A stretch of 64,000 bases of DNA from assembly GCF_000300875.1 (NCBI RefSeq), contig NZ_AMSG01000007.1:62001-126000 (forward strand), in the 5' to 3' direction. Shown piece after piece: positions 48,853 to 64,000 of the stretch (positions are counted from its first letter, which is position 1; each line of letters starts with the position of its first letter). The notes under the pieces were generated by a model, which had not been told where the DNA came from, made no database searches, and saw only the letters and a list, made by a program, of their open reading frames with translations. The translations under genes were made by a program, and so were the position numbers. The stretch comes from Galbibacter marinus. Its GTDB lineage: Bacteria; Bacteroidota; Bacteroidia; Flavobacteriales; Flavobacteriaceae.

Positions 48853-50067
48853 TTATGGTGGATTTTTGAAAAAGAATAAAAAACCAATAACAGCCAAGAC
48901 AATGCTGCCAGCAATTATAAAAGGGTAGTAAAAACCACCTGCGAGTAACCAAGTCCCTAAAACAGGCCCTAGAATTTGACCAACGCTATTAGTAGAGCTC
49001 TGAATAGAAATGTTCCTGCCAGTATTTTGCTTTGATATTAATGAGACCGCAGAAAGTAAATTTGGGGTTACCATAGCACCTCCAGCAGCGAAAACAACGA
49101 TTAACACATATACCAAGTATTCATTCTTAAAAAAGGGAAAGACAATTAAGGATAATCCAGATATAAACAACCCTAATGCAATTTGTTTCTTTGTGGATAA
49201 AAACTTCTCTCCGTAAGTAGCGAACAAAGGTTGTAAAACAGCCATTATTGAACCACATAGCATAAAACCAATACCTATTTGGTTACTGTTAAATCCTAAT
49301 TCATCTTTCCCATATATTGAAAAGACAGTTTCAAACAGCGTTACTACAAATTGGATGACAAACGACAGACCAAGTAATACGACAAAATATTTGGTAAATG
49401 TGAATCGCAAGCTCGCTTTTTGTGTTGTGAACGTATGTACGCGAGTGGTGTTTTTTAACCATTTTGCTACTACAAATAAGACTATAAGTCCTAGAAGAGC
49501 GGCAAACAAAAAGGGTACTGAAAATCGGTCTAAATGCAGCAGACCTATCGTATATTTTAAATGAAGGTCAGTTTGAGACAGAAAGCCACCAATGACAGGG
49601 CCAAAAATAACACCAGAGCTAATGGCAACACCCGACCAACCCATTATTTTTGTTCTTCGTTTTTCAGAAGTAATGTCGCTCAAATATGCGTTGCTAACTG
49701 GAATAACTGATGACGTGAAAATACCACCAAAGATGCGAGCAACATATAGCATCGTCAATGATGTAGCAAGACCGGTAAGTAATTGCATAATTACAAAGCC
49801 GATTAGCCCAACAATGATAATGGGTTTACGGCCGTATTTATCGGATAGCCTGCCCCAGAGTACAACGAAAAGAAGCTGGAAGAGCGGATAAATACTGGTC
49901 AAAAAACCAATATGAAAGTTAATCGAATCAGTATCTAGGTTATCTCCTAAAGCTAATCTTTCGGTATAGTAGGGAAGGGTTGGCAATAAAATACCATAGC
50001 CCAACATCACTACAAATAAACTCAACAGGATTAAAAATATCCTGTTGAGTTTTTCTTTTTTGTCCAT
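48853..50067 (-). CDS. MFS drug:H+ antiporter (DHA1/TCR-like)
   Basis: 404 aa, about 12 TM helices. Motif A reads GRLSDKYGRKP, and motif C-like GVIFGPVIGGFL is present. Closest in style to the tetracycline/multidrug DHA1 group; substrate unknown. Its ATG directly abuts the copB stop (no spacer), so it is translated from the island operon as the last gene. It faces the ParB remnant tail to tail (43 bp), with no obvious terminator between them. Confidence 0.88.
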   Translation of the reverse strand: MDKKEKLNRIFLILLSLFVVMLGYGILLPTLPYYTERLALGDNLDTDSINFHIGFLTSIYPLFQLLFVVLWGRLSDKYGRKPIIIVGLIGFVIMQLLTGLATSLTMLYVARIFGGIFTSSVIPVSNAYLSDITSEKRRTKIMGWSGVAISSGVIFGPVIGGFLSQTDLHLKYTIGLLHLDRFSVPFLFAALLGLIVLFVVAKWLKNTTRVHTFTTQKASLRFTFTKYFVVLLGLSFVIQFVVTLFETVFSIYGKDELGFNSNQIGIGFMLCGSIMAVLQPLFATYGEKFLSTKKQIALGLFISGLSLIVFPFFKNEYLVYVLIVVFAAGGAMVTPNLLSAVSLISKQNTGRNISIQSSTNSVGQILGPVLGTWLLAGGFYYPFIIAGSIVLAVIGFLFFFKNPP

Positions 50068-52170
50068 TTATTTTTTACCGATTTTTCGCTTTAATAATTG
50101 CGCATTGATAGCCACTATAATCGTACTTAAACTCATAAGTACAGCTCCAACGGCTGGGCCCAAAACAAAACCGGTAGAATAAAGCACTCCAGCAGCTAAC
50201 GGAATGGCTATAACGTTGTATCCCGTTGCCCAAACAAGGTTCTGGATCATTTTATTGTATGTAGCCTTACCGAACAAAATCAAGTTAGCAATATCTTGTG
50301 GGTTGCTGTTTACCAAAATAATATCCGCGGTTTCAGCGGCTACGTCTGTGCCAGAACCTACTGCAATACCTACATTGGCTTGAGCCAGAGCCGGTGCATC
50401 GTTCACTCCGTCTCCTGTCATTGCCACAAACTCTCCCTTACTTTCCAATTCTTTTACTATTTCCACTTTTTGATGTGGCAAAACTTCGGCGTAGTATCCA
50501 TCCAAGCCGAGTTTATCGCTAACAGCTTTGGCAGTTCTTTCATTATCACCGGTAGCCATTAAAACTTTTATATTATTCTTTTTGAAAATTTTGATGGCAT
50601 CGGCAGATTCCGGTCTAATTTCGTCCGCCAATGCTATGTATCCTGCCAGTTTTCCATCAATCAAGACAAAAACAACAGTTTCTGCGGCATCGCTATAGGC
50701 ATCCTCTGGAATAGTTATTTTTTCATCCCTTAAATATCCGGGACTTACAACTTTTATTTCTTTCCCTTCTACGTTCGCCTCGACTCCTTTACCGGTAATT
50801 GCGTTAAAGTTTTCAGGGTTCGGAATAATAACTTCATCTTCTTTTACTTTTTTAATTATTCCAACCGCAATAGGGTGTTCAGAACTCTGTTCCAATGCAC
50901 TTGAAAGCCTCAAAATTTCTTTAGGTGGATATTTCTGATTGACCGACTCAACCCTTGTTACACCAAAATCACCTTTGGTCAATGTTCCAGTCTTGTCGAA
51001 TAATAATGCCGTTATTTTTCGGGATTCTTCAAAAGCTGTTCTATTTCTAATCAATAATCCATTCTGTGCAGAAACCGCAGTAGAAATAGCGACCACTAAT
51101 GGAATGGCAAGACCTAAAGCGTGCGGACACGCAATAATCATTACCGTTACCATACGCTCCAAAGCATACACAAAAGGGAAGCCTAAAATTAGCCAAACCG
51201 CCAATGTGCCAAATCCAATACCTAATGCGATATAGGTAAGCCATTTTGCAGCTCTATCCGAGAGGTTTTGCATTTTTGATTTGGACTTTTGTGCTTCTTC
51301 AACCATTGTGATCACCTTGTTGAGATAACTGTCCTTTCCTGTATGCTCAACCTTTACCTTTATGCTGCCATTACCGTTTACCGAACCTCCAATAACCTTA
51401 TCATCTATTTCTTTCTTAACTGGTTTGGACTCCCCAGTAAGCATAGATTCATTCAGGTAGCTGGTGCCTTCTGTTATAATACCATCAGCAGGCACCTTTT
51501 CACCTGGTTTTACTAATATGACATCATCTTTTAACAAATCTTCCAACGGAATATCTTCTATGGTATCACCCTTTACCCTATGGGCTTCTGCGGGCATCAT
51601 ACTTACCAAAAGCTGTAAGGCCTTTGATGCTCCCAAGACGCTTTTCATCTCTATCCAATGTCCTACCAACATAATAGCGATAAGGGTAGCCAGTTCCCAG
51701 AAAAAATCAACTCCTTCTAAGCCGAACACGGTTGCCGAACTATAAACGTAAGCCACGGTAATGGCCATAGAAATAAGGGTCATCATCCCTGGTGCACCTT
51801 TTTTAACTTCGGACCAAAATCCGGTAATAAATGGCCAGCCGCCATAGAAATACACTACAGAAGAAAGGCCAAATAATATATATTGGTTTCCGGGAAGCAG
51901 GAACTCATACCCAATAAACCCTTGGATCATCGGGGAGATGATGAGGATGGGAATGGTCAAGATTAAGGTTACCCAAAACCGTTTCCTGAAATCGGCAATC
52001 ATCATTTTATGATGGTCGTGGCCCATTTGACCGTGACCCGGATTGTGACCCGAATGGTCCCCACCTTTGTGGTTCATTTTAGAATGGTCTTCTTTTTTGT
52101 GTTTCATCTTCGAATGGTCCATTTTAGAATGGTCCATTTCATCGTGATTGTGGTGTTCGTGATTTTCCAT
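50068..52170 (-). CDS. copB: CopB-type heavy-metal P1B-ATPase
   Basis: 700 aa. The first about 55 residues are extremely His/Met-rich (repeated DHSKM-type units), a metal-binding tail. The transmembrane metal site is CPH (IIACPHALGLAIPL), which defines the P1B-3 (CopB, Cu2+/Ag+) group, rather than the CPC of CopA. Catalytic Asp in DKTGTLT, TGES in the actuator, and GDGVNDAPAL hinge. Exports Cu or Ag from the cytosol. 18 nt after the 97-aa gene and contiguous with the MFS gene. Confidence 0.94.
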   Translation of the reverse strand: MENHEHHNHDEMDHSKMDHSKMKHKKEDHSKMNHKGGDHSGHNPGHGQMGHDHHKMMIADFRKRFWVTLILTIPILIISPMIQGFIGYEFLLPGNQYILFGLSSVVYFYGGWPFITGFWSEVKKGAPGMMTLISMAITVAYVYSSATVFGLEGVDFFWELATLIAIMLVGHWIEMKSVLGASKALQLLVSMMPAEAHRVKGDTIEDIPLEDLLKDDVILVKPGEKVPADGIITEGTSYLNESMLTGESKPVKKEIDDKVIGGSVNGNGSIKVKVEHTGKDSYLNKVITMVEEAQKSKSKMQNLSDRAAKWLTYIALGIGFGTLAVWLILGFPFVYALERMVTVMIIACPHALGLAIPLVVAISTAVSAQNGLLIRNRTAFEESRKITALLFDKTGTLTKGDFGVTRVESVNQKYPPKEILRLSSALEQSSEHPIAVGIIKKVKEDEVIIPNPENFNAITGKGVEANVEGKEIKVVSPGYLRDEKITIPEDAYSDAAETVVFVLIDGKLAGYIALADEIRPESADAIKIFKKNNIKVLMATGDNERTAKAVSDKLGLDGYYAEVLPHQKVEIVKELESKGEFVAMTGDGVNDAPALAQANVGIAVGSGTDVAAETADIILVNSNPQDIANLILFGKATYNKMIQNLVWATGYNVIAIPLAAGVLYSTGFVLGPAVGAVLMSLSTIIVAINAQLLKRKIGKK

Positions 52171-52188
52171 TATTGTCTTGTTTAAGTG

Positions 52189-52482
52189 TTATCGTAATTT
52201 TTTTCTCATAGCTTCCGAAATGTTTTCGGCATAGACGCCATAGGCATCTACCAAAAGTCCTTTAATCCCATTTTTTGATGAAATAGCATAAAGCACACTA
52301 TTATCGTCGGTACTGCTCATACCCTCAAAACGATGCATCTCGTCAACATTAAAATCTTCTGGGTGTATTTCAATTTTTAGTGAGGCACACTCCAAACATT
52401 CTGGTTTTAGGTTAAAATCATATGTATAGCTATTTCCCTGTAAATCGTTTATGGCTTCAGAAAGTGTATCGTAATTTTTCAT
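52189..52482 (-). CDS. Small conserved protein beside prs (97 aa)
   Basis: 97 aa, acidic, no signal or TM. Contains CLECASLKIEIHPEDFNVDE with a CxxC (Cys35, Cys38 approximately). Homologues in Flavobacteriaceae often carry the label phosphoribosylpyrophosphate synthetase, probably transferred from neighbours: it is far too short and has no PRPP loop. Function unknown. 6 nt after the secreted protein gene, 18 nt before copB. Confidence 0.75.
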   Translation of the reverse strand: MKNYDTLSEAINDLQGNSYTYDFNLKPECLECASLKIEIHPEDFNVDEMHRFEGMSSTDDNSVLYAISSKNGIKGLLVDAYGVYAENISEAMRKKLR

Positions 52483-52488
52483 CTGTCT

Positions 52489-53133
52489 TTATTTATAGTT
52501 TATTGTAAAATAGCTGTTATCTGCTTCTGAAAATTTCTGAAAAGTCAATAATCCTTTTTCATTTAATTTTTCAATAACAGTATAATTGAATTGCTTGATG
52601 CGAATACCCCAGGCATAGGCCTTAATATTTATTTTTGATTTAATAGTGTTTTTGCCAGCTTCTAATTTTCGATCGTAAATTTTTATGATGCTTTTTGAAC
52701 CGAAAAAATTCAACAAGCCCGAGTCAAAACTCATTTCCAATTCAATATTTTTCAGATTATCCAAATTGTATAGTTCTTTAAATTTCTTTGAAGTGGTGTT
52801 GATTTCTGTTTTCTTTGATTTTGGATTGGAAAACGGGAAAGCCATTACCACTACACTTGCTTCATCAGGCTTACAGCGATAGGTTGTGGTGTATTTATCG
52901 GTCAATTTTTTGTCTTTATCAAACAATTCCGTAACTACCTCAATTTCATAGTATCCATTTTTCTTTATTGTTTCACTGGCTTTGAAAGTTTGTTTATTTA
53001 AAAAAGAACCATTTTCATCAAAGTTTTCCCGAATAACAACTCTGCCTGAAATCTGCCCAATGAGCATTTCAGTTTGTCCAGTCATTGTGATGCTGAATAA
53101 AGTGATTAGTACTATAAAGCCTTGTTTTCTCAT
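52489..53133 (-). CDS. Secreted beta-rich protein of unknown function
   Basis: 214 aa. Signal peptide (about 1-19, ITMTGQ). The mature part is beta-rich with a single Cys (TYRCKPDEASVVVMAF). It resembles secreted proteins of the DUF3108/TapB-like group, but I cannot assign a family securely. Its ATG overlaps the prs stop by 4 nt, so it is translationally coupled inside the island operon, an odd location for a secreted protein between prs and copB. Confidence 0.7.
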   Translation of the reverse strand: MRKQGFIVLITLFSITMTGQTEMLIGQISGRVVIRENFDENGSFLNKQTFKASETIKKNGYYEIEVVTELFDKDKKLTDKYTTTYRCKPDEASVVVMAFPFSNPKSKKTEINTTSKKFKELYNLDNLKNIELEMSFDSGLLNFFGSKSIIKIYDRKLEAGKNTIKSKINIKAYAWGIRIKQFNYTVIEKLNEKGLLTFQKFSEADNSYFTINYK

Positions 53134-54023
53134 ATATGGTGCATTAATTTTTTTACCTCTTTTGCCATAATATCACTTAAATCTATTCCATTTGAAGAGT
53201 GTGGGATGGTATTACAAGTCACTATTTTTTCTACTCCGGAATCCAATAAATCTTGATAGGCGTTTCCTGAAAAAACGGCGTGAATGCCTACACAAATAGG
53301 TGGTTTCATTCCTGCTTTTTTAAGATGTTGTACGGTTTCAATCATTGTTCGGGCTGTGGAAATAATATCATCTACCAAAATGGGTGTAGCATCTTTATAT
53401 ATATCCACATCGGGAACAGAGACTTCTACATCACGGTCACCGTGACGCACCTTTTGTAATACCGTAAATGGTGCTCCTGCATTTTTGGCGACTTCTGATA
53501 CCCATTGTTCACTTTCAGAATCAGGTCCGATAAGTACCGGGTTTTCGATATTTTCTTTAATCCATTCTGAAATTGCGTCGGCAGCGTGAATCACTTTATT
53601 TGGAATTTGATACACTTCTCCCAACGAACTAATTCTGTGCAAGTGAGGGTCAACTGTGGTAATGCTATCGGCGAAACCAGAAATCAATTTTCCGAAGAAA
53701 CCGGAAGTCACTCCTTCTCCTTCATTAAATACTTTGTCCTGCCGCATATACGCCAAATAGGGTGCTACCAAACAGGTACACATAGCTCCTAATGATTTGG
53801 CTGTGTGGCTTAAAAAATATAGTGACAACAGTTTTCCGTCCGGTTCGTGCAAGGTGCATACCAGTACCACACATTTATCTTTAACATCAGACAATATGCG
53901 CGTGTATGATTCCCCGTCAGGGAATTTCCTTAATGTGGCTTGACCCACTTCAGCATCCATTTTTGTAGCCATTAGTTCTGTTAGTTCTTCATTTCCGGGA
54001 AGACTGAATAATATTGTTTTCAT
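53130..54023 (-). CDS. prs: Ribose-phosphate pyrophosphokinase (archaeal-like short type)
   Basis: 297 aa, shorter than the about 315-aa housekeeping bacterial PrsA. Makes PRPP from ribose-5-P and ATP, releasing AMP. Visible blocks: LRKFPDGESYTRI, TVDPHLHR, IGPDSESEQWV, KVRHGDRDVEV (flexible-loop Lys/Arg) and the PRPP loop ILVDDIISTARTM. Its divergent, compact form suggests a second, island-borne enzyme. 10 nt after the AMP phosphorylase gene; AMP is the product of one and substrate of the other. Confidence 0.92.
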   Translation of the reverse strand: MKTILFSLPGNEELTELMATKMDAEVGQATLRKFPDGESYTRILSDVKDKCVVLVCTLHEPDGKLLSLYFLSHTAKSLGAMCTCLVAPYLAYMRQDKVFNEGEGVTSGFFGKLISGFADSITTVDPHLHRISSLGEVYQIPNKVIHAADAISEWIKENIENPVLIGPDSESEQWVSEVAKNAGAPFTVLQKVRHGDRDVEVSVPDVDIYKDATPILVDDIISTARTMIETVQHLKKAGMKPPICVGIHAVFSGNAYQDLLDSGVEKIVTCNTIPHSSNGIDLSDIMAKEVKKLMHHI

Positions 54024-54033
54024 AGTATGTTCT

Positions 54034-55536
54034 TTAATTTATAGTTATGATGTCGTTATGGTTGTTTTCATATTCCAAGGCATAATTAAGTTCACCTTTG
54101 GATTCAGCATATATGGTATAAAGCAGTTGGTTCTCTTCGATTTGTTCTCCCAAATGCACATTTAGAAGAATCCCTGCCGATTTAGATTGTGGTGCTCCAG
54201 AAAGCTTGGCCAGTTTTGCAATTTTACGGTTATCAATTCGTTGCAAAACGCCTGACTTTTCAGCTTTAATTTCAATTTTATAAGGTGCTAAAACTGGTTT
54301 TGAAAATTGACCTTGCGCCTTACAAATGGCTACGAATTTTTCATATGCTTTTCCAGATTTGAGAATTTTATGTGCGGTTTCCTGTCCCTTTCCTTTTTCT
54401 ACTTTTCCAGAAAGTTCTAATAGTTCAGTAGCTAAAAGCAATGCTCTTTCTGTTAAGTCTTTAGGTGCATCTTCCTCATTTTTCAAAACTTTTAATATAT
54501 CTATGGCTTCTAAAGTTGGACCGATACCCCTTCCAACAGGCTGCGTGCCATCCGTAACTACAACTTTTACATTCAACCCAACAGCAGTTCCAACGGTTTC
54601 CATATGATTTTTTAGTTTTTCTGCCATTTCGGTACTGCGAACCTTGGCGGTTTCTCCCACGGGAATATCAATGACCACGTGAGTAGAACCAGCTGCTGCC
54701 TTTTTAGAGAGTACTGAAGCGATGAGTTGCCCTTCGCTATCAATATCCAAGGCTTTTTCAATTTTAATGAGCACATCATCGGCAGGACTTAACTGCGCTG
54801 TACCGCCCCAAACAAAACATCCGCCTTCTTTTTCTACTACGGTCTTTATTTCCTCGGAAGAGAGCGTAACATTGGTCAGTACTTCCATTGTATCTGCTGT
54901 GCCTGCTGGCGAAGTGATTGCCCGTGAGGATGTTTTTGGCATAGTAAGCCCATACGCGGCAACAATGGCAACTACCAATGGTGTTGTCCTATTGCCAGGC
55001 AATCCGCCAATACAATGTTTGTCGACCACGATATCCTTGTTCCAGTTCAGTTGCTTTCCGGAAGCAATCATTGCTTTCGTTAGGTCGGATATTTCATCAA
55101 TATCCATTCGGTCGCCAGCACAGGCAGTAATAAATGCTGAAAGGTGGATGTTGGAATAATCGCCTTCCACGATATCGGTTATGATGTTGTTATAGGCCTT
55201 ATAATCCAGTTTTTTGTTATAGATTTTTGCCCTGACGTGGCTTAAGGATTCAATAGGCTCTAAATGGGAAACATATAATGTATCGTTTGGGGAAACATTG
55301 AGTTTTTTCGCAGCAGCATCTGATAGTCCGATTTCATTAGGCAACAGAATATCAGAATTCAGGACATTAAGACTTGCTACGATTGATGTATTTGCATTGG
55401 ATATTCTTATTCGGGTAAGTACCTCAAACCCTTCTGAAATACAAACGTGGCAATCTTCGCGCATATACACTACATTCTCGTTTTGGGTATAGATTCCGAG
55501 ATGTTTATATTTTAATATGTTTGAGTGTGTGTCCAT
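54034..55536 (-). CDS. AMP phosphorylase / thymidine phosphorylase family 2 (DeoA-like)
   Basis: 500 aa, the length of archaeal AMP phosphorylase and about 60 longer than bacterial DeoA. It has the extra N-terminal domain (about 1-85), then the pyrimidine-phosphorylase core with VVDKHCIGGLPGNRTTPLVV, KTSSRAITSPAGTADTMEVL and GGTAQLSPADD, and the C-terminal hammerhead part (AEKSGVLQRIDNRKIAKLAK). The characterised archaeal enzyme converts NMP plus phosphate to base plus ribose-1,5-bisphosphate. Whether this protein takes AMP rather than a nucleoside must be tested. 10 nt before prs, 21 nt after the MBL gene. Confidence 0.9.
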   Translation of the reverse strand: MDTHSNILKYKHLGIYTQNENVVYMREDCHVCISEGFEVLTRIRISNANTSIVASLNVLNSDILLPNEIGLSDAAAKKLNVSPNDTLYVSHLEPIESLSHVRAKIYNKKLDYKAYNNIITDIVEGDYSNIHLSAFITACAGDRMDIDEISDLTKAMIASGKQLNWNKDIVVDKHCIGGLPGNRTTPLVVAIVAAYGLTMPKTSSRAITSPAGTADTMEVLTNVTLSSEEIKTVVEKEGGCFVWGGTAQLSPADDVLIKIEKALDIDSEGQLIASVLSKKAAAGSTHVVIDIPVGETAKVRSTEMAEKLKNHMETVGTAVGLNVKVVVTDGTQPVGRGIGPTLEAIDILKVLKNEEDAPKDLTERALLLATELLELSGKVEKGKGQETAHKILKSGKAYEKFVAICKAQGQFSKPVLAPYKIEIKAEKSGVLQRIDNRKIAKLAKLSGAPQSKSAGILLNVHLGEQIEENQLLYTIYAESKGELNYALEYENNHNDIITIN

Positions 55537-55557
55537 ATTTTTTTTGATTGTTGTGAT

Positions 55558-56934
55558 TTATTCTATTTCTTCGATGGTGTATAATTGCGGAATTTCTGCA
55601 TCCCACCCATAAGTTTCCTTGATGCCTTTTTGCAATGCTTCTGCACTCTCTTTTTCACCGTGTACAATGAAAATACGTTCGGGTTTGTTTTTTATATTGT
55701 CCATCCAGTCCATAAGCTCTGCGTGGTCTGCATGTGCCGAGAGGCCTTGAATTTCGGCTACTTCCATATTAAACGGCACCCATTTGCCATATACTTTTAG
55801 CTCTTTATCGCCTTCCAATAATTTTCTTCCGCGCGTTCCTTCCGCTTGGTACCCAACAAAAAGCAACGTGTTATTAGGATTTTGCGCTTGGGTTTCAAGA
55901 TAGTTGAGCATTCTTCCGCCCGTGAGCATTCCACTTCCGGCAATCACAATTTTTGGTTTATTATCGGTTCGTAATTCCATAGTCTCGCGATAGCTGCTCA
56001 CGACAGTAAAGTGTGAACACATTTCGTCACATTCATTCTCGTTCAGCCTATGCCAATCTCTGGTACGGTGGAAGAGTTCCAAAACACTAGCTCCCATCGG
56101 GCTGTCCATTATCATTTGCACTTTGGGAATTTTGTGCTCTTTCAGTAATTTCCAAAAAATAAGCATCATCAATTGGGCACGTTCTACCGAAAAGCTTGGG
56201 ATAAACAGGCTGCCACCTCTATTGATGGTGTCATTTACCAATTTTTCAATCAGTGGAAGTGCTTCCATTTCATCTGGATGAAACCTTCCTCCATAAGTAG
56301 ATTCTATAAAAAGCACATCTGCTCTTTTTGGTTTCAGGGGTGGATAAAGCAATAAATCACTGGTTCTTCCAATATCTCCTGAAAAGACAAAACGCTTTCC
56401 TTCAACATCCAGCTCGATGAATGTAGCACCAAGAATATGTCCGTTATACTGAAATCGTGCCTTGATACCATCAAATAACGGAATCCATTGTGCTTGTGGA
56501 ACGTCTTTAAAATGTGGAATGGTTTTTTCTACATCATTTAAATCGTAAAGTGGTTCAGCAGGACTGTGTTTGGAATAGCCCTCTTTATTGGCACGTTCGG
56601 CTTCCTGTTCTTGTATTTTGGCACTATCATTCAATATGATTTTTGCGATGTCCAAGGTGGGATTGGTGCCGTAAATGGGCCCTTTGAAACCTTGCTTTAC
56701 CAATCTCGGCAAATATCCTGTATGGTCCATATGGCCGTGGGTAAGCAAAACAGCGTCAATATCAGCAACATTAACGGGTGGATACTCCCAGTTTTTAAGG
56801 CGTAATTCTTTTAACCCTTGAAAAAGTCCGCAGTCTATGAGTATCTTTTTATCTCCTGTGTCCACTAAATATTTTGAGCCGGTTACCGTACCTGCTGCAC
56901 CTAAAAAGTGAATATTTATTTTATTGTTATCCAT
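55558..56934 (-). CDS. Beta-CASP metallo-beta-lactamase, RNase-like
   Basis: 458 aa. MBL part: LGAAGTVTGSKYLV, metal motif LTHGHMDHTGYLP, FSGDIGR. Beta-CASP insert: ESTYGGRFHP, GGSLFIPSFSVERAQLM, GSGMLTGGRM, with ISO-type ends LSAHADHAELMDWM and IFIVHGEKE. Resembles RNA-specific ribonucleases of the YciV/Ysh1 type found in bacteria and archaea. In the island it lies between a CCGG-tail protein (15 nt) and AMP phosphorylase (21 nt). RNA turnover would yield NMPs for the next enzyme, a plausible link. Confidence 0.92.
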   Translation of the reverse strand: MDNNKINIHFLGAAGTVTGSKYLVDTGDKKILIDCGLFQGLKELRLKNWEYPPVNVADIDAVLLTHGHMDHTGYLPRLVKQGFKGPIYGTNPTLDIAKIILNDSAKIQEQEAERANKEGYSKHSPAEPLYDLNDVEKTIPHFKDVPQAQWIPLFDGIKARFQYNGHILGATFIELDVEGKRFVFSGDIGRTSDLLLYPPLKPKRADVLFIESTYGGRFHPDEMEALPLIEKLVNDTINRGGSLFIPSFSVERAQLMMLIFWKLLKEHKIPKVQMIMDSPMGASVLELFHRTRDWHRLNENECDEMCSHFTVVSSYRETMELRTDNKPKIVIAGSGMLTGGRMLNYLETQAQNPNNTLLFVGYQAEGTRGRKLLEGDKELKVYGKWVPFNMEVAEIQGLSAHADHAELMDWMDNIKNKPERIFIVHGEKESAEALQKGIKETYGWDAEIPQLYTIEEIE

Positions 56935-56949: not shown

Positions 56950-57204
56950 TTAGAGTCCACCACAGCAAGAAGGTGTATTTCCTTTATCTTGTTTTGATTT
57001 GCTCAATTCCACTATTTCTTTATATAGATTTCGTGAATCCTCTTTAATATAAAGTGCTACCTTCTTAATAGAGTTAGTTTCTAACTCAACCATATCCAAT
57101 AGAATTTCTATGGCCTCGTCAAGCAATTTCGGGTCCTCTTCGAGAGCTTCGTAAAACGGCTCAAAATCTAATTGATTCTGTTGTTGTGAATCTTCTTTTT
57201 TCAT
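56950..57204 (-). CDS. Small acidic helical protein with CCGG tail (84 aa)
   Basis: 84 aa. Mostly alpha-helical and acidic (EALEEDPKLLDEAIEILLDMVE), then a Lys-rich segment and the terminal SCCGGL. The vicinal Cys pair may bind metal or form a redox switch. No family recognised. Part of the island operon (39 nt after the ATP-cone gene, 15 nt before the MBL gene). Confidence 0.65.
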   Translation of the reverse strand: MKKEDSQQQNQLDFEPFYEALEEDPKLLDEAIEILLDMVELETNSIKKVALYIKEDSRNLYKEIVELSKSKQDKGNTPSCCGGL

Positions 57205-57243: not shown

Positions 57244-58089
57244 TTATTGATGTACTGAACATAATTTTTCTGAATCTTCTAAAATCTTTTTGTGTCTTTT
57301 ATTATCAATTCCTATTTTTTCCAAGAGCTTCGGGCTTTCGTGAAGCTCTTTGCAGAGTACGATGCCTTCATCTAATAATTTTGTTTTTTCAGCTTTGGTA
57401 AGTGTTGTTAAAGCGGTTAAGGGATGTAGCCCAGATTTATCTATTCTGTCTTTAAGACCATTTCCTCTTGGATAATCCCAACTTGTCAACAACAATCCCA
57501 CGCATGTACCATATTGTACCGCATCACTTGTAAATCGTGTATTTGTATAGACGCCTCCTTTGTGAAGTTTAGTATCGTGACCTTTTTGGCGTTCCCAATT
57601 TTTTTCTACATCTAAAAATCTTGAATTGATGTATAATGGAATCTTCACGTTGCAAACTCGGCCTTGATCGCTATGGTATTTGCATTCAATCATATAATGA
57701 TTATTGTCTTTTTGCGCTATCACATCTATTTCGTGTTGAACACAATTACCTTGGACAATAACATCAACTTCTGTATCAAAACCTTCGTGTGCCAATAGTT
57801 TGCCTACTAATTTTTCAAATGGAAAACCGGTTGGACCTAGTTCCATTAAAGCTTTTTTGAGCTTGTACTTTGAGGCACTTACCCTAGATTTTCGTTTTAG
57901 CATCTTGAAAGCCAACTGATAGATTTTTTTGGTTGTCATTCCTTCTTCAATCTGCTCTTGTACTTTCCGGGCTATATCTTGAATAATATCCTCATCTGCC
58001 CGTGAACGCCGCAGGGAGTTGATGAGTTTGTTTACATCAAAGGCTTCGTACTCACCAGAGTATTTTTTTATTAAGACTGATTTATTCAT
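57244..58089 (-). CDS. ATP-cone fused to Mrr/REase-fold domain
   Basis: 281 aa. N-terminal ATP-cone (about 5-90: LIKKYSGEYEAFDVNKLINSL...), the nucleotide-sensing module of ribonucleotide reductase and NrdR. The C-terminal part (about 90-215) looks like a PD-(D/E)xK endonuclease: ELGPTGFPFEKLVGKLL, QHEIDVIAQ (Asp) and HYMIECKYH (ExK). The tail (215-281) is helical. No methyltransferase lies nearby, so it is not a classical R-M enzyme; ATP/dATP-gated nuclease activity is the simplest hypothesis. 2 nt after the Usp gene. Confidence 0.87.
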   Translation of the reverse strand: MNKSVLIKKYSGEYEAFDVNKLINSLRRSRADEDIIQDIARKVQEQIEEGMTTKKIYQLAFKMLKRKSRVSASKYKLKKALMELGPTGFPFEKLVGKLLAHEGFDTEVDVIVQGNCVQHEIDVIAQKDNNHYMIECKYHSDQGRVCNVKIPLYINSRFLDVEKNWERQKGHDTKLHKGGVYTNTRFTSDAVQYGTCVGLLLTSWDYPRGNGLKDRIDKSGLHPLTALTTLTKAEKTKLLDEGIVLCKELHESPKLLEKIGIDNKRHKKILEDSEKLCSVHQ

Positions 58090-58091
58090 TG

Positions 58092-58922
58092 TTACATTTT
58101 AATAGTCATTACTGGTAATTCGGAGTGATTGGTTACACCCTCTGCGATGCTTTTAGAGAATAAGCTTAAAAAGCCTGTACGTCCGTGAGTACACATTGCG
58201 ATTAAATCGGCATTTTTATATCGTAAATAATTGTTTATCCCTGTTTCTACGTCTGGTTCGTTATATACATTCATTGAGAAGTTATCCAAATCGGGGAATT
58301 TTTTCAGGAACTCCTTGATGGGATCCAACCCTTGTTCTATACTGTTAAAATCGGTCTGAGTATTGACCCTCAATAAATGGATATGTGCGCCGCATTTTTC
58401 AGCAATCGAAATAACTTGCTTAAATGCATCGCTTACATCTTGAAGAAAATCTGAAACAAAAACGATATCCTTAAAAGGAAAGGATACTTCTTCATCCTTG
58501 ACTACAACAACTGGTACATCAGCTTTCCTAACAATTTTTTCTACGTTGCTTCCCATTAACTCACGTATACCGCCTCGGGTGCCACTACTTCCCGTAACTA
58601 TAAAATCGTGATAAAAATGACCCGAATGTTTAAGGATATTTGCCTGACCACCATCAAATTTAAGAAAAGTCCTGCATTCAAGGCCTTGTCGTTCTGCTTT
58701 TTTCTCCAGTTCTCTCAGGTAGGCTTTTGCGATGCCTATTTGCTTTACTGTTTCTGGGTGCTGTTTTTCTTTTTGTTTATCCAACTTTACCCATTCTACC
58801 GGGGTTTTCATCAAATGGAAAAAATGGATTTCGGAATTGTAAAGCTTTGCCATTTCAATTCCGAGTTCTTCTGCTTTATTGCAATTTTTTGAAAAGTCTG
58901 TTGGTACGAGTATGTTTTTCAT
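58092..58922 (-). CDS. Tandem universal stress protein
   Basis: 276 aa, two Usp domains. Domain 1 (about 1-142) starts ILVPTDFSKNCNKAEELG and ends with the nucleotide loop TGSSGTRGGIRELMGSNVEKIV, keeping the G-2x-G-9x-G(S/N) ATP-binding pattern. Domain 2 (about 148-276) has CTHGRTGFLSLFSKSIAEGV. ATP-binding Usp proteins respond to energy and oxygen stress. Located between ldhA-like (18 nt) and ATP-cone (2 nt) genes. Confidence 0.92.
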   Translation of the reverse strand: MKNILVPTDFSKNCNKAEELGIEMAKLYNSEIHFFHLMKTPVEWVKLDKQKEKQHPETVKQIGIAKAYLRELEKKAERQGLECRTFLKFDGGQANILKHSGHFYHDFIVTGSSGTRGGIRELMGSNVEKIVRKADVPVVVVKDEEVSFPFKDIVFVSDFLQDVSDAFKQVISIAEKCGAHIHLLRVNTQTDFNSIEQGLDPIKEFLKKFPDLDNFSMNVYNEPDVETGINNYLRYKNADLIAMCTHGRTGFLSLFSKSIAEGVTNHSELPVMTIKM

Positions 58923-58940
58923 AATATTTGTTTTTAACTA

Positions 58941-59936
58941 TTAATTAATGCTAATTTCATTTCCAGAAGGTTTTTGTTTTTCAAAACAATCCAGATTATA
59001 TATGGTTGTTTCTGCAATATTGGTCAATGCGGTTTTGGTTAAAAAAGCTTGATGGCTTGTAATTAGTACATTGTTGAAAGTCATTAAGCGTGCAATCACA
59101 TCGTCTTGCAAAATGTCATCGGAATGGTCTTCAAAGAACAATCCTTCTTCTTCCTCATAAACATCCAGTCCTAAATACCCTATTTTTTTAGTTTTCAATC
59201 CTTCGATAACTGCCTTGGTGTCCACCAACCCACCACGACTTGTATTGATGAGCATTACTCCAGATTTCATTAGTGCTATATGCTCTTTATTTATTAAATG
59301 TTTTGTTGAAGCTTTTAATGGCACGTGCAGGCTTATTATATCTGCGTGCTTACAGAGCGTCGCACAATCTGAATAGATTACGCCATATTTATCAATTAGG
59401 TCTTTGCTTTCTTCTATATCCTGGGCAAGAATATTGCAGCCGAATCCGTGAAGTATTTTTACGAGTACAGACCCTATTTTTCCTGTTCCAATCACGCCAA
59501 CGGTTTTCCCATTTAGGTCAAAACCAGTGAGACCGTTTAATGAAAAGTTTTGTTCGCGCACTCTATTGTGGGCTTTAATCAGTCTTCGGTTTAATGCAAG
59601 TATCAAAGCCATTGTATGTTCTGCAATGGCATAAGGTGAATAGGCTGGGACACGGGCCACTTTTATATTCAATTCAGCTGCTTTTTCTAAATCGACGTGA
59701 TTGAAACCTGCCGAACGTAATGCGATAAATTTTATGCCTAGTTTGTGTAAAATATCCAAAACTTCCGAAGAGGCATCGTCACTTGAGAAAAGTGCTATGG
59801 CCTTTGAACCTTCTGCCAATAAGGCGGTTTCCTTTGTTAGCCTAAATTCCAGAAAATTCAATTGATGTTTTCCTTTATTAGCGTTTTCAATGGAAGGCTT
59901 ATCGAATTTATGTGTGCTGTATATTGTTGTTTTCAT
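58941..59936 (-). CDS. ldhA: D-lactate dehydrogenase (LdhA-type)
   Basis: 331 aa. Same length and pattern as fermentative E. coli LdhA: LRSAGFNHVDLEKAAEL, VARVPAYSPYAIAEH, FSLNGLTGFDLNGKTVGVIG, the NAD motif GVIGTGKIGS, INTSRGGLVDTKAVI, and a catalytic His in ITSHQAFLT. Reduces pyruvate to D-lactate with NADH. 3 nt after pfkA, supporting a glycolysis-plus-fermentation unit. Another D-2-hydroxyacid is possible but less likely. Confidence 0.88.
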   Translation of the reverse strand: MKTTIYSTHKFDKPSIENANKGKHQLNFLEFRLTKETALLAEGSKAIALFSSDDASSEVLDILHKLGIKFIALRSAGFNHVDLEKAAELNIKVARVPAYSPYAIAEHTMALILALNRRLIKAHNRVREQNFSLNGLTGFDLNGKTVGVIGTGKIGSVLVKILHGFGCNILAQDIEESKDLIDKYGVIYSDCATLCKHADIISLHVPLKASTKHLINKEHIALMKSGVMLINTSRGGLVDTKAVIEGLKTKKIGYLGLDVYEEEEGLFFEDHSDDILQDDVIARLMTFNNVLITSHQAFLTKTALTNIAETTIYNLDCFEKQKPSGNEISIN

Positions 59937-59939
59937 AAT

Positions 59940-60911
59940 TTATGTTCCAAATAGTTCTAAAAGTTCGTGCAATTCTTTATTGACCTGATGTTGCTTGACC
60001 ACCTCATTAAAAGGGGTTAAGTGCAATTGATTGTTTAAAATCCCGATCATTACATTCTTTTTACTTTGTAAAAGCGATTTTACGGCTTCCACCCCAAGCC
60101 TTATGCCCAACATTCTATCCAAAGCACAAGGATTTCCACCTCGCTGTATGTGGCCAAGCTTTGTTATGCGTAAATCGACATTGGGATTGACTTCCTTTAT
60201 TTTTGAAGAAACAAGTTCGGCACCAATTTCGTCACCTTCAGAAACTACGATTAGAAAAGCATCCTCGCTATCGTAATTTTTCACCTTACCCAAAAGGTTA
60301 ATAAAGTCCGTACCGCTCTCCGGAATTAATATGGCGTCCGCACCAACCATCAATCCAGAATGAATACCGATGTAACCCGAATCCCTTCCCATTACTTCAA
60401 CAATGAACACACGGTTATGGGATTCGGCAGTATCCCTTATTTTATCAATATTTTCAATGGTTGTGTTAACTGCGGAATCAAAACCAAGGGTGTAATCAGT
60501 ACCCGAAATATCGTTATCAATAGTTCCGGGAATCCCTATGAATGGGATATCGCATATCTCTGAAAAAGCAAGTAATCCTTTAAATGTACCATCACCACCA
60601 ATGGCAATTAAAGCGTCTATTTTGTTTACATTTAGAGTTTGCAAGGCTTTTTTTCGACCTTCCAGTTCGAGAAAACGTTTGCTTCGGGCTGTCTTAAGGA
60701 TAGTGCCACCCTTTTGGGTCAGTTTTTGTAATTCGTGTGATTTTAATTGAACCAAGTCACCGTCTATCAATCCTTCATATCCTTTTCGAAAGCCGCTTAC
60801 GTTTATACCATTTACTTCAGCCGTTTTTGTAATGGCGTACAAGGCTGCATTCATCCCTGGACTATCACCTCCAGAGGTAAATACACCTATATGTTTTATA
60901 GTACTATCCAT
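59940..60911 (-). CDS. pfkA: ATP-dependent 6-phosphofructokinase
   Basis: 323 aa, bacterial PfkA length. GVFTSGGDSPGMNAAL (ATP loop), IGGDGTFKG (Gly after GGD, the ATP-using type rather than PPi-using), PGTIDNDISGTDYTLGFD (catalytic Asp; not the PPi-type PKTIDND), EVMGRDSGYI and LGHIQRGGNPCALDR. Phosphorylates fructose-6-P. 2 nt after the symporter, 3 nt before ldhA. Confidence 0.95.
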   Translation of the reverse strand: MDSTIKHIGVFTSGGDSPGMNAALYAITKTAEVNGINVSGFRKGYEGLIDGDLVQLKSHELQKLTQKGGTILKTARSKRFLELEGRKKALQTLNVNKIDALIAIGGDGTFKGLLAFSEICDIPFIGIPGTIDNDISGTDYTLGFDSAVNTTIENIDKIRDTAESHNRVFIVEVMGRDSGYIGIHSGLMVGADAILIPESGTDFINLLGKVKNYDSEDAFLIVVSEGDEIGAELVSSKIKEVNPNVDLRITKLGHIQRGGNPCALDRMLGIRLGVEAVKSLLQSKKNVMIGILNNQLHLTPFNEVVKQHQVNKELHELLELFGT

Positions 60912-60913
60912 AG

Positions 60914-62254
60914 TTATAAAGCTTCTTTTTTAAGAATTTCAGTATTTTTTATACCATACAACCTATTAAAAACCATACAAGCTGTAAGGTCACCCGTTAC
61001 GTTTACAGCAGTCCTGAACATTCCCAACAATCTTTCTACACCAATAATAATGATGATGCCTTCGGCTGGGATACCGACACTTCCCAAAACAGAAGCGAGT
61101 ATCACCACACCACCTCCGGGAATGGCAGGTGTGCCGATTGAAGCAGCAACGATGGTTACGATGACCACAATAATATTGAGCAAACTCATTTCCAAGCCAT
61201 AGGCTTGGGCTATGAATAGCGTAGTTATGGTTTGATAGAGTGCAGTGCCATCCATATTGACGGTTGCACCTATGGGAATAATAAAATTGCTAATGGTCTT
61301 GTCCACCTTCAATTCTTCTTCGGCTGTTTGAAGGGAAAGTGGCATCACGGCCGCAGAGCTTGTGGTTGAAAAGGCCAATAATTGAACGTCCCTTATTTTT
61401 TTTAGGAAATGCATAGGGTTTGCTTTTCCAAGAAGCACAATTAGCCCTAAATAGAAAATTACCAAAAGTAATAGACCGAGCAGGACGACGCCAACATAAT
61501 AGGTGAGACCGGAAAGAGAACTTAAACCAACACTAGAGGTAAGCTGCGCCATAAGTCCGAAAACAGCAATAGGCACTAGAAGCATTGACCATTTTACTAC
61601 TGTCATACAGACTTCCTGAATGGCAGTTAGAAGCAGCTTCACTGGGCGCAGTAAGGCATTTTCAAGTGAAAGCACAGCTACACCAATAATGATTGTGAAA
61701 ATTACAATGCTTAACATTTCACCACTTACCATAGATGCCAACGGGTTTTCGGGAAGTAAGTTTGAGATGGCATCAGGAATCGTTTCAATTCCGAAGGAAA
61801 GCTCTGGATTTTCCGTTGGAACAGCTGTAATTTCATTATGTTCAGCTAGAGCCTGTTGATGTAAAAAGCGACCAGGTCTAAAAAGTTGAGATAGTATGAC
61901 ACCCAAACTTACCGAAACTATCGTAGTACCTAGAAAATATAACAAAACCCCACCACCTAATTTTTTTAGATTGTCCTTATCATTACTTGCTATTCCAGTA
62001 ATGATGGAAGCCACAATCAACGGAATCATAATCATTTGAACCAGTTTCAGAAATAGTACACCAGGCAATGCCAGCCAATTCCCCGCGATATCTGCTGTTT
62101 CTTTAGAAATCCATCCATTTTGTGGGCTCAATAGCAGACCAAATCCAACACCTAAAAACAAGGCAATGATTACCTTAAGCCATAGACGACTTTCTACCAA
62201 TCTTATGAGGTAGTGGTTAAGTGATTTTAATGATTTTATCTCTGTGTCAAACAT
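60914..62254 (-). CDS. Dicarboxylate/amino acid:cation symporter (DAACS)
   Basis: 446 aa GltP/DctA-type transporter. Eight TM helices plus re-entrant loops: STTSSAAVMPLSL (HP1 serine-rich), GATVNMDGTALYQ (TM7 NMDGT) and IGTPAIPGGGVVILASVLGS (HP2). Takes up glutamate, aspartate or C4-dicarboxylates with Na+ or H+. Its place inside a glycolytic operon (8 nt after fbaB, 2 nt before pfkA) is unusual. Confidence 0.93.
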   Translation of the reverse strand: MFDTEIKSLKSLNHYLIRLVESRLWLKVIIALFLGVGFGLLLSPQNGWISKETADIAGNWLALPGVLFLKLVQMIMIPLIVASIITGIASNDKDNLKKLGGGVLLYFLGTTIVSVSLGVILSQLFRPGRFLHQQALAEHNEITAVPTENPELSFGIETIPDAISNLLPENPLASMVSGEMLSIVIFTIIIGVAVLSLENALLRPVKLLLTAIQEVCMTVVKWSMLLVPIAVFGLMAQLTSSVGLSSLSGLTYYVGVVLLGLLLLVIFYLGLIVLLGKANPMHFLKKIRDVQLLAFSTTSSAAVMPLSLQTAEEELKVDKTISNFIIPIGATVNMDGTALYQTITTLFIAQAYGLEMSLLNIIVVIVTIVAASIGTPAIPGGGVVILASVLGSVGIPAEGIIIIIGVERLLGMFRTAVNVTGDLTACMVFNRLYGIKNTEILKKEAL

Positions 62255-62262
62255 TCTGTTGA

Positions 62263-63324
62263 TTATGCTATATTAATTTTATTATCCAGATACACTTCCT
62301 GAACGGATTGTAATACTCTCACGCCTTCGCTAAAGGGTTTTTGAAATGCTTTTCTTCCCATTATCAGCCCAGAACCACCAGCCCTTTTATTGATAACGGC
62401 AGTTGTTACAGCTTCGGACAAATCTGATTTGCCTTTGGAACCACCACCTGAATTAATCAGTCCTATTTTTCCCATATAACAATTGGCAACTTGTAACCTA
62501 CAAAGGTCTATGGGATGGTCTGTGGTAAGGGTTTTATACATTTCATCATCATATTTTCCAAATCCTATCTCTTTGAAACCAAAATTATTGGTTGGTAATT
62601 TTTGTTTGATGATATCTGCCTGTATCGTTACTCCAATCTGATTGGCTTGTCCGGTTACATCGGCCGATGCGTGATAATCTTCTTTATCGGTTTTAAAAGC
62701 TTCATTTCGTGTATAGCACCATAAAATGGTAGCCATACCAAGATTATGAGCTTCTTCAAAAGCCTCTGCTATTTCTTTGAGTTGTCTGTTACTTTCCGCT
62801 GAACCAAAATAAATCGTAGCTCCTACGGCAATTGCTCCCATATCCCAAGCGGTTTTTACCTTACCAAAGAGTGTTTGGTCATATTTGTTCGGGTAGGTAA
62901 GCAGTTCATTGTGGTTAATCTTAACGATAAAAGGGATTTTATGGGCATATTTTCGGGCATTCAAACCCAAAACCCCAAACGTGGAAGCCACCCCATTACA
63001 ACCGGCCTCAAGGGCGAGTTTTATAATGTTCTCTGGGTCAAAATAATCCGGATTTTTATAGAAAGAAAAAGCTGCACTATGCTCGATACCTTGGTCTACT
63101 GGAAGGATACTCAAGTAGCCTGTACCACCAAGATTTCCGTGGTTATACAATTGCGAAAGGCTTCGCAGTACCTGCGGATTTCTGTTGCTTTGGGTAAATA
63201 CCTTATCTAGGCTTGTTCTACTTGGGGTTTGCAATTCATCCTTTGTTATTTTTTCACAAACGTGTTCTAAATAGAAGTCTGCTTTTTCTCCTAAAAGTTC
63301 TACTATATTCTTGTCTGTTTTCAT
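62263..63324 (-). CDS. fbaB: Class I fructose-bisphosphate aldolase (FbaB/DhnA type)
   Basis: 353 aa, close to E. coli FbaB along the whole length: [68 protein letters not shown] (carries the Schiff-base Lys region), [17 protein letters not shown] and [15 protein letters not shown]. Cleaves fructose-1,6-bisphosphate without metal. The DhnA family is shared with archaea, where it can also be bifunctional FBPA/ase; this sequence is of the plain aldolase form. 11 nt after gap. Confidence 0.94.
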
Positions 63325-63335
63325 TTTGATAGTAT

Positions 63336-64000
63336 TTAATGGATTCCTAAACTTTCATTTGTTTTGGCTATGGATTTTGTACCATCTGTTTCAATTCCAG
63401 TTAAAGCCCTAATAGCATCAATTGTTTCCGGGATTACAATAGCTTGGTTATCGACCACGTAGGCATAAAAGAGTTCGTCTCCCTGTACCTTCAGCATATC
63501 TTCCCATAGTGCTACTTCGTACATATCGCCCCAAGGCCTTCCCATATCCAAGAACATTTCCTTAATGGTATTGTTAGAAACCAGACCTTGGTCATATTGA
63601 ATCAATTTAATACGGCTGGACGTTTTGAAAGCATTTAGCACTTCTTGCTTTGTCGCCTGTTTTTTCAATTTCACATTCCAATAGTGCAGATGGCTTAAGG
63701 TTTGCGGTACTTTTACTGCTGCGGTGATGACATCCAGTTCTGGGTCAACACTTTTAGCATCCGGACCTTGATGGCTTGGGATATCTTTTTCGGGAACCAT
63801 CGTATTCATAATACCACCTAAATGACTTTCCCAAGGGTCTGTAGCTCTTCTTAAAAGTGTACCTCTGGCATAATCCAATAAATCGGCTCTTTTTAAAGCG
63901 GTCAAGGTTCTTAAAATAGACGTAGTATTACAGGAAACTACACGTGTAGCATCTAGATTTAGAGCAGACTGATAATTATTTTCAGCACTAAAGGAATGGC
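63336..64000 (-). CDS. Type II (archaeal-type) glyceraldehyde-3-phosphate dehydrogenase, partial
   Basis: About 221 C-terminal residues are visible; the N-terminus lies beyond the window. The minus-strand frame crosses the window edge without a stop. The catalytic block [15 protein letters not shown] has the Cys codon at 63930-63932. It is followed by [26 protein letters not shown] and [16 protein letters not shown], the order and spacing of archaeal type II GAPDH and unlike bacterial GapA (SCTTNCLAP). A TTG at 63905 is internal, not the start. Archaeal enzymes of this type use NAD+ or NADP+. It heads the visible part of the island operon, 11 nt before fbaB. Confidence 0.92.

What the first reader, a model, noticed from the sequence alone, without database searches (positions are those of the whole stretch)
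48853..64000. Fifteen-gene, single-strand island operon combining glycolysis, lactate fermentation, AMP/PRPP metabolism and ATP-sensing proteins
Seen: fifteen consecutive minus-strand genes with gaps of -4 to 39 nt and no internal terminator I can find. Transcription order is type II GAPDH, fbaB, DAACS symporter, pfkA, ldhA-like, tandem Usp, ATP-cone/nuclease, CCGG protein, beta-CASP MBL, AMP phosphorylase-like, prs, secreted protein, 97-aa protein, copB, MFS. Known: each family has a defined activity, and several bind ATP/AMP or generate them. Inference: one coordinated, transferable cassette for survival at low energy charge or low oxygen. It would shift sugar flux through enzymes insensitive to host regulation, recycle AMP, and make lactate to regenerate NAD+. 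I know of related AMP-phosphorylase/PRPP-synthetase/Usp/MBL/ATP-cone neighbourhoods in other bacteria, but not a characterised system of this composition.
Basis: partly seen in the sequence, partly recalled or inferred. Interest (0 to 1): 0.85.

Follow-up and report, generated by a model that had tools for sequence, protein, structure and literature searches.

The report
Mobile metal-resistance island carrying backup metabolism
A bacterium's transferable metal-resistance island also carries a long row of alternative sugar-burning and nucleotide enzymes, which may keep the cell supplied with energy when metals or lack of oxygen stop its respiration.

Summary
The fifteen genes are real, on one strand, with gaps of -4 to 39 nt. 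The unit continues past the window edge through an APC permease, NDH-2, Usp, a copper-chaperone-like HMA protein and an AraC-type regulator; diverging from it are CusA/TolC/multicopper-oxidase genes. The block lies in a tRNA-Leu-integrated island (99-106 kb in three relatives) with att duplication and tyrosine integrase. It moves: 96% nt identity to another species of the genus, chromosome 71%. The triad beta-CASP nuclease / AMP-phosphorylase-like / Prs recurs in 40 of 80 loci. A P1B metal pump lies within 10 kb in 20 of 50 loci, 1.3 expected. Type II GAPDH shares 19 plasmids with the phosphorylase, under 0.1 expected. In print, a same-named Bradyrhizobium triad is microoxia- and FixK2-dependent, and a copper ICE has an 18-gene Cu-induced cluster with copA and GAPDH. 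Best reading: a portable kit for substrate-level ATP and PRPP supply when metals or low oxygen stop respiration.

The parts
47749..47831 (+). tRNA-Leu, integration site (attL side) of the island
   Evidence: a 72-bp copy (98.6%) of positions 25-96 lies beside the integrase on own contig C37
47773..47844 (.). attL repeat (part of tRNA-Leu plus 13 nt) matched by the copy on contig C37
48390..48809 (+). truncated ParB-like protein (139 aa; 598 aa at the same place in G018, G453 and G455)
48853..50067 (-). MFS transporter
50018..50052 (.). perfect 14-bp inverted repeat inside the MFS start
50068..52170 (-). CopB-like copper P1B-ATPase with His/Met-rich N-terminus and CPH motif
   Evidence: TIGR01511 611.7 bits, cut-off 397
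52189..52482 (-). 97-aa protein with CxxC, no accepted family
52489..53133 (-). 214-aa putative secreted protein, no accepted family
53130..54023 (-). ribose-phosphate pyrophosphokinase (Prs), PRK07199 type
54034..55536 (-). AMP-phosphorylase-like protein (PRK04350/TIGR02645) with N-terminal CxxC
55558..56934 (-). MBL-fold beta-CASP/RMMBL nuclease
56950..57204 (-). 84-aa protein ending SCCGGL, no accepted family
57244..58089 (-). ATP-cone plus Mrr-type nuclease domain protein
58092..58922 (-). tandem universal stress protein
58941..59936 (-). D-2-hydroxyacid dehydrogenase (lactate dehydrogenase not proven)
59940..60911 (-). ATP-dependent 6-phosphofructokinase
60914..62254 (-). DAACS (SDF) symporter
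62263..63324 (-). class I fructose-bisphosphate aldolase
   Evidence: NF006707 636 bits, cut-off 327
63336..64000 (-). type II GAPDH, cut by the window edge (whole gene to 64349 in window-plus-contig coordinates)
   Evidence: NF003251 448 bits, cut-off 185

Best explanation
The fifteen genes are the distal part of a long same-strand unit on a tRNA-Leu-integrated mobile metal island (shown). Inferred function: when copper or another soft metal, or lack of oxygen, stops respiration and poisons cytosolic enzymes, the unit keeps carbon flowing and ATP and PRPP available. PfkA, class I aldolase and type II GAPDH form a second route through the ATP-yielding part of glycolysis, with aldolase and GAPDH of other classes than the host's own. 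The 2-hydroxyacid dehydrogenase and NDH-2 reoxidise NADH. Prs restores PRPP. The beta-CASP nuclease and the AMP-phosphorylase-like protein would turn RNA or NMPs into bases and phosphorylated ribose. Usp and ATP-cone proteins sense the adenylate state. The ATP feeds the island's pumps, CopB of the same unit included. Shown: gene content, mobility, linkage to metal genes. Published for relatives: induction by low oxygen (same-named triad) and by copper (a cluster with copA and GAPDH). Inferred: the biochemical roles, one transcript, and respiratory failure as the common trigger.
For: Own genome: the unit continues into an HMA copper-chaperone-like protein and an AraC-type regulator, divergent from CusA/TolC/multicopper oxidase. 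Island: att repeat 98.6% and a 90%-identical integrase on own contig C37; elements bounded by tRNA-Leu and a partial or full copy in G453, G455 and G018. Transfer: 96.4% against 71% nt identity; Marinicella pacifica (a gammaproteobacterium, recalled) proteins 84-89% identical for GAPDH, ATP-cone, MBL, AMPpase, Prs and CopB. Metal link: P1B-ATPase within +-10 kb in 20 of 50 loci, 1.3 expected; 14 of 17 annotated plasmid regions hold metal genes. Type II GAPDH sits on 37 of 72,556 plasmids; 19 of these are among the 60 listed of 155 AMPpase plasmids. Hosts already have GAPDH-I (23 of 25 over the cut-off), class II aldolase (13 of 13) and another, higher-scoring Prs (16 of 16). In L057 GlgP-AckA-phosphoketolase, another ATP-yielding route, stands before the 2-hydroxyacid dehydrogenase. 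Literature: Cu(I) inhibits Prs and prs dosage sets Cu sensitivity (PMC10249872); Cu inhibits GAPDH (PMC6350627); triad and phosphoketolase raised at low oxygen and FixK2-dependent; Cu-induced 18-gene ICE cluster with copA, norA and terminal GAPDH (PMC13393423).
Against: No expression or phenotype data for this organism. 40 of 80 loci have no metal gene by the strict count, 31 by the loose one; many are AMPpase-Prs pairs in gammaproteobacterial contigs. The 2-hydroxyacid dehydrogenase is under every D-LDH cut-off, and S. aureus L-LDH was switched off at 1.5 mM Cu in one medium, where the aldolase also fell slightly. NDH-2 needs a working quinone pool. Island Prs has 6 and AMPpase 6 cysteines, so they are not poor in copper ligands. 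Class I aldolase shows no such link on plasmids. P. putida carrying the P. aeruginosa ICEs had unchanged Cu MIC, which the authors lay to its high baseline. In L057 the GAPDH block may lie beyond the 10 kb held, as it does for L052 (compare). The 80 loci are the best matches to a flavobacterial-led profile and related to each other, so the statistics are not independent.
Confidence: 0.56

Rival explanations
1. Target bypass: the island brings isozymes of exactly those enzymes that Cu(I) poisons (GAPDH, Prs, perhaps Zn-aldolase), of other structural classes and therefore less sensitive. It is a specific copper-tolerance module rather than a general energy kit.
For: Cu(I) inhibits Prs, and copper inhibits GAPDH, in S. 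aureus. Island enzymes are type II GAPDH, class I aldolase and a PRK07199-type Prs beside the hosts' type I GAPDH, class II aldolase and higher-scoring Prs. Strong metal linkage.
Against: No reason from sequence for lower copper sensitivity; cysteines are not depleted. Explains neither the FixK2/microoxia induction of the triad's namesakes nor AMPpase, nuclease, Usp and ATP-cone.
Confidence: 0.35
2. RNA/nucleotide salvage: the beta-CASP nuclease and AMP-phosphorylase-like enzyme degrade RNA/NMPs to base and ribose 1,5-bisphosphate, which Prs-linked steps and phosphoketolase or glycolysis use; metals are only one inducer.
For: The AMPpase-Prs pair is the most conserved part (same strand, within 200 nt, in 66 of 71 loci), also without metal genes. 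The best PDB sequence matches of AMPpase are 4ga5 and 4ga4, deposited as putative thymidine phosphorylase (that they are the T. kodakarensis AMP phosphorylase is recalled).
Against: AMP_phos model 494 bits, under its cut-off 535. No R15P isomerase over the cut-off in 26 genomes, so the fate of the product is unknown.
Confidence: 0.3
3. Hitch-hiking: unrelated useful genes gathered on a mobile island, with no joint function.
For: Variable inserts (NhaA for APC, methyltransferase, SDR and glycosyltransferase-like proteins, by eye) in related islands; class I aldolase not linked on plasmids.
Against: Order kept in several loci of different genera; co-occurrence with metal genes and of AMPpase with GAPDH-II on replicons of other phyla.
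Confidence: 0.13

Closest known systems
ICE13534/ICE24TCP of Pseudomonas aeruginosa (PMC13393423; sections 6 and 9 read, passages elsewhere)
   Same: tRNA-integrated ~120-kb copper element; 18-gene Cu-induced mixed cluster with copA, norA and a terminal GAPDH
   Different: Other element family (ICEclc-like, tRNA-Gly); the remaining genes of the cluster are in a supplement not read. Its likeness to the Acidovorax p1-T1 cluster (MerR opposite, P-ATPase, MFS, MBL, AMPpase, Prs ... GAPDH) is my inference, not tested by sequence.
FixK2 microoxia regulon of Bradyrhizobium diazoefficiens, bll3117-bll3115 and bll2518-bll2517 (PMC6515984: section 18 part 1 and passages; PMC9104804: passages)
   Same: MBL, Prs and thymidine-phosphorylase-family triad plus phosphoketolase/acetate kinase
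   Different: Not described there as a metal island; homology to our proteins taken from names and adjacency, not compared by sequence
Archaeal AMP phosphorylase / R15P isomerase / type III RubisCO pathway (recalled)
   Same: AMP-phosphorylase-like enzyme
   Different: Isomerase not found over the cut-off in 26 genomes (RubisCO not searched); paired with Prs and a beta-CASP nuclease instead; N-terminal CxxC invariant in 9 of 9 aligned
Copper-resistance plasmid clusters (Sphingobium pDE1 and pSLPG, Methylophaga, Acidovorax p1-T1)
   Same: MBL, AMPpase and Prs beside CueR/CopA/CopB/CopCD, Cus or P-ATPase genes
   Different: No class I aldolase/Pfk/DAACS block annotated in the stretches read

Membership tests
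tRNA-integrated genomic island (tyrosine recombinase) | direct repeat of the tRNA 3' part at the far end | tested here: met
   72-bp, 98.6% copy on own contig C37; copies at the far ends in G453, G018, G455. The own element is split over two contigs, so its two ends are not seen on one.
tRNA-integrated genomic island (tyrosine recombinase) | tyrosine integrase at one end | tested here: met
   G000:C37:3468-4679, 90% identical to the G453 integrase; Pfam Arm-DNA-bind_5, SAM_5, Phage_integrase on the G453 one
Integrative and conjugative element | conjugation genes | tested here: inconclusive
   none recognised by eye among the 97 ORFs of at least 90 aa in the G453 stretch; not scanned with profiles
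AMP phosphorylase (TIGR03327) | score over the curated cut-off | tested here: not met
   494.3 bits, cut-off 535; PRK04350 and TIGR02645 are over theirs
AMP phosphorylase pathway | R15P isomerase in the genome | tested here: not met
   0 of 26 genomes over the TIGR00511 cut-off, 5 weaker matches
Ribose-phosphate pyrophosphokinase | over the model cut-off, conserved K/R and PRPP-loop aspartates | tested here: met
   PRK07199 394.8 bits, cut-off 322; K191, R193, D218, D219 invariant in 9 of 9 (meaning of residues recalled)
Type II GAPDH | TIGR01546 / NF003251 over cut-off | tested here: met
   325.9 of 232.9 and 448.2 of 185 bits
Class I fructose-bisphosphate aldolase | a class I model over its cut-off | tested here: met
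   NF006707 636.4 of 327 bits; the sister models NF006706, 6705 and 6704 are below theirs
D-lactate dehydrogenase | a D-LDH model over its cut-off | tested here: not met
   best NF000492 236.9 of 540; NF006374 200.4 of 356
Copper P1B-ATPase | TIGR01511 over cut-off, CPx motif | tested here: met
   611.7 of 397 bits; CPH read in the sequence
Copper- or hypoxia-regulated operon | induction by copper or low oxygen in this organism | not testable with these tools
   only relatives in print

The most novel reading that the evidence does not exclude
Mobile metal-resistance islands of several phyla carry, beside pumps, a portable 'second central metabolism': isozymes of other classes for the enzymes that copper poisons, or a phosphoketolase/acetate-kinase bypass, together with a new nucleotide cycle (beta-CASP nuclease, NMP phosphorylase, Prs). 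This would be metal resistance by replacing metabolism rather than by removing the metal.
Probability: 0.35. Interest if true: 0.85.

Novelty: new variant of a known kind. Interest (0 to 1): 0.64.

Why it matters
Metal resistance is usually explained by efflux, oxidation and sequestration. A conserved, transferable set of central-metabolism enzymes beside the pumps, in several phyla, would mean that islands also make good the metabolic damage, and it gives a testable role to the uncharacterised nuclease / NMP-phosphorylase / Prs triad. It joins separate published observations (microoxia-induced triad; copper-poisoned GAPDH and Prs; Cu-induced ICE cluster with GAPDH) into one question. Searches for the triad or the GAPDH/phosphoketolase block with metal islands and for AMP phosphorylase with copper or plasmids listed no paper that describes this module by title or abstract start; of the listed papers I opened passages of four (PMC13393423, PMC2864759, PMC6315756, PMC6515984; also PMC10249872) and left the rest at the listing. 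Only open-access papers are held.

Tried and rejected
Composition: GC 0.35-0.41 along the window, no help in marking the island. Type II (Ca/H-like) P-ATPases were first counted as metal pumps (24 of 50); a motif count gave 20 of 50, which is used; it misses at least L116, whose pump is TIGR01511 over cut-off, and the motif marks P1B pumps in general, not copper alone. Class I aldolase on plasmids: 56 records, 30 of them Rahnella, Escherichia, Klebsiella, Salmonella or Proteus; none of the 40 listed is among the 60 listed AMPpase records: a negative result. Anaerobox scan by operon start: 4 perfect and 5 one-mismatch of 80 loci; the fuller listing gave 19 perfect boxes in 1.744 Mb of 88 loci. 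Checked: boxes 24-105 nt before a same-strand run that leads to the AMPpase in L047 (annotation), L094, L095, L098, L117, L130, and in L123 inside the preceding ackA ORF; seven of 88, about 0.12 expected for 120-nt stretches. L126, first counted, was dropped as unclear. L095 and L098 are near-duplicates. The 'gap' upstream of DUF5676 turned out to hold two small genes. A near-identity plasmid search for the Acidovorax cluster found no other record covering most of it; Pseudomonas was among the short matches. Structure prediction was not used. A uranium-stress proteome names a thymidine phosphorylase 2.5-fold up in one Burkholderia strain (PMC6315756, passages); which protein family it is was not checked.

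Plasmid regions: 18 opened, 17 annotated; H45 had no annotation. Of the 17, 14 hold metal genes in the stretch; H15 and H105 none (H105's record has a heavy-metal P-ATPase about 20 kb away); H116 only RND pumps and a 'periplasmic heavy metal sensor'. Ten of the 17 were picked by hand from the 60 best, seven by me from the 24 rows of a spread list.


Full report
What is there. Profile matches support the names, except that the 'ldhA-like' gene is only a D-2-hydroxyacid dehydrogenase, and the AMP phosphorylase is over the cut-off for PRK04350 and TIGR02645 but not for AMP phosphorylase proper.

What the window hides. The window is G000 contig C7:62001-126000. The contig goes on for 16,862 bases. 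The same-strand unit continues through an APC permease, NDH-2, Usp, a lycopene-cyclase-domain protein and DUF5676 with gaps of at most 19 nt. Then come a SHOCT protein, a heavy-metal-associated (HMA, CGGC) chaperone-like protein, small proteins and an AraC-type regulator with a CxxC near its N-terminus. No terminator-like site was found in L016 4500-8300. Divergent from it are a CusA-type pump, a TolC-like protein and a multicopper oxidase. So metal genes stand at both ends: CopB and MFS last, the HMA protein near the start.

A mobile island. tRNA-Leu at 47749-47831 is the integration site. A 72-bp copy (98.6%) of its 3' part lies beside a 404-aa-type tyrosine integrase on own contig C37, so the island is probably split over at least two contigs of the draft. 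In G453, G018 and G455 the whole element is readable on one contig: tRNA-Leu, full-length ParB, this block among metal genes, integrase, tRNA copy; about 102, 106 and 99 kb. In the window the ParB is a 139-aa remnant. The block is 96.4% identical over 27 kb to G005 of the same genus, in which 5.2 kb of the neighbouring chromosome is 71% identical. Among 395 genomes of the class 19 (own included) have the AMPpase at E 1e-60.

A core with many partners. An AMPpase relative is on 155 of 72,556 plasmids at E 1e-5, 115 at 1e-60. The triad is seen in Bacteroidota, Pseudomonadota, Chlamydiota (plasmid) and one MAG labelled Verrucomicrobia (L060); the AMPpase-Prs pair also in MAGs labelled Planctomycetota (L087), Gemmatimonadaceae (L129) and Pyrinomonadaceae (L113). 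MAG labels can be wrong. ATP-cone occurs in 23 loci, 21 of them with metal genes; Usp 11 of 11; GAPDH-II 13, 10 with metal; class I aldolase 9 of 9; phosphoketolase 11, 7 with metal. All fifteen genes in order are in three loci (L051, L054, L059); flanks of 10 kb cut others: L052 lacks the GAPDH block in its flank, but its genome G453 has it further on. In L057 GlgP, AckA and phosphoketolase stand directly before the 2-hydroxyacid dehydrogenase, another ATP-yielding route; whether the GAPDH block follows beyond the flank is not known.

Metal link. Against the density of TIGR01511 matches in the same 50 genomes, a P1B-ATPase lies within 10 kb in 20 of 50 loci, 1.3 expected (13 of 19 in L051-L072, 7 of 31 in the rest). 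Any metal gene: 40 of 80 strict, 49 of 80 loose. Fermentative and metal genes go together (21, 9, 19, 31; Fisher p 0.01). On plasmids, 19 of the 37 type II GAPDH records are among the 60 AMPpase records listed (expected 0.03 with these 60, 0.08 with all 155). Related plasmids are not independent, so the p-values are not to be taken literally. 14 of 17 annotated plasmid regions have metal genes. Class I aldolase has no such link on plasmids.

Low-oxygen link. In B. diazoefficiens the same-named genes bll3117, bll3116, bll3115 and phosphoketolase bll2518 rise at 0.5% O2 (log2 2.1, 4.4, 2.9, 4.3 and 5.1, 7.7, 15.4, 8.2-fold, which I read as protein and transcript; PMC6515984). They stand in that paper's wider list of 71, not among its 62 most significant proteins, and are not marked there as FixK2 targets. 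In PMC9104804 bll3117 and bll3115 fall 6.6 and 30.6-fold without FixK2, bll2518/2517 about 10-fold, with a FixK2 box given 74 nt from bll3117 and a predicted operon bll3117-3116-3115. In relatives, perfect TTGAYN4RTCAA boxes lie 74-75 nt before the MerR...CopA...AMPpase runs of L094, L095 and L098, 77 nt before phosphoketolase-AMPpase-Prs of L130, and similarly in L047, L117 and L123; most loci have none.

Copper link in print. Cu(I) inhibits S. aureus Prs, PRPP falls, and prs dosage changes copper sensitivity (PMC10249872: abstract and passages). GAPDH is inhibited by copper, and aldolase and GapA rise in one medium (PMC6350627: abstract start and passages); in the other, at 1.5 mM Cu, aldolase was 0.9-fold and L-lactate dehydrogenase was off. 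In P. aeruginosa ICE13534 an 18-gene cluster with copA, norA and a terminal GAPDH is copper-induced, a cueR homologue lying opposite; in ICE24TCP the GAPDH gene itself was not (PMC13393423 section 9). It looks much like Acidovorax p1-T1: MerR opposite, P-ATPase, MFS, MBL, AMPpase, Prs, hydroxyacid dehydrogenase, GAPDH-II (my comparison, not tested by sequence). Cu MIC of P. putida was unchanged by these ICEs.

How it may work. The common factor of copper stress and microoxia is failing respiration (inference). The hosts tested have their own counterparts: GAPDH-I over the cut-off in 23 of 25, class II aldolase in 13 of 13, another Prs in 16 of 16. The island adds GAPDH and aldolase of other classes and a lower-scoring Prs type. 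I infer a backup for substrate-level ATP, NAD+ and PRPP, feeding the island's ATP-driven pumps. The AMPpase product has no known outlet here: R15P isomerase is over the cut-off in 0 of 26 genomes. The step from ribose 1,5-bisphosphate is the weakest link of the model.

Verdict. Observation confirmed and extended; interpretation partly supported. The parts are known families and metal islands are a known kind; I found no description of the conserved metabolic module on them in the searches made.

Noticed in passing
L016:6646-7227 (window-plus-contig 70646-71227): AraC-type regulator with a CxxC-bearing N-terminal part, perhaps a metal sensor for the unit; related ORFs in G018, G453 and G455
   Followed up: partly
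window 50018-50052: Perfect 14-bp inverted repeat within the first codons of the MFS gene
   Followed up: no
window 54034-55536, protein residues 25-36: MRxDCxxC..EG motif, CxxC invariant in 9 of 9 aligned AMPpase relatives; could bind metal
   Followed up: partly
window 48390-48809: ParB of the island cut to 139 aa; 598 aa in three relatives, so the left end is decayed
   Followed up: yes
L021-L022 (G018) and L142-L148 (G453): Inserts in the unit: NhaA for APC, methyltransferase, SDR, MgtC-like, glycosyltransferase-like and sugar-isomerase-like genes (mostly named by eye)
   Followed up: no
L045-L050, L116, L169, L171: DUF2933, DUF5676, isoprenylcysteine methyltransferase and lycopene-cyclase-domain proteins recur around the triad
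   Followed up: no
coordinates: G453 3834-3873, G455 3427-3466, G018 10449-10488, G005 (L158) 6804-6842: A 39-40-bp copy of the 5' half of tRNA-Leu stands just before tRNA-Leu in four relatives, not in the window
   Followed up: no
L058: Two partial Prs matches side by side; the island Prs looks broken there
   Followed up: no
L017-L020 (G005:C2) and L178 (G005:C1): In G005 the block sits on contig C2 beside transposase-like ORFs, while a related integrase with a tRNA-Leu stands on C1 about 57 kb from the tRNA-Leu of L158, so another element may occupy that site
   Followed up: partly
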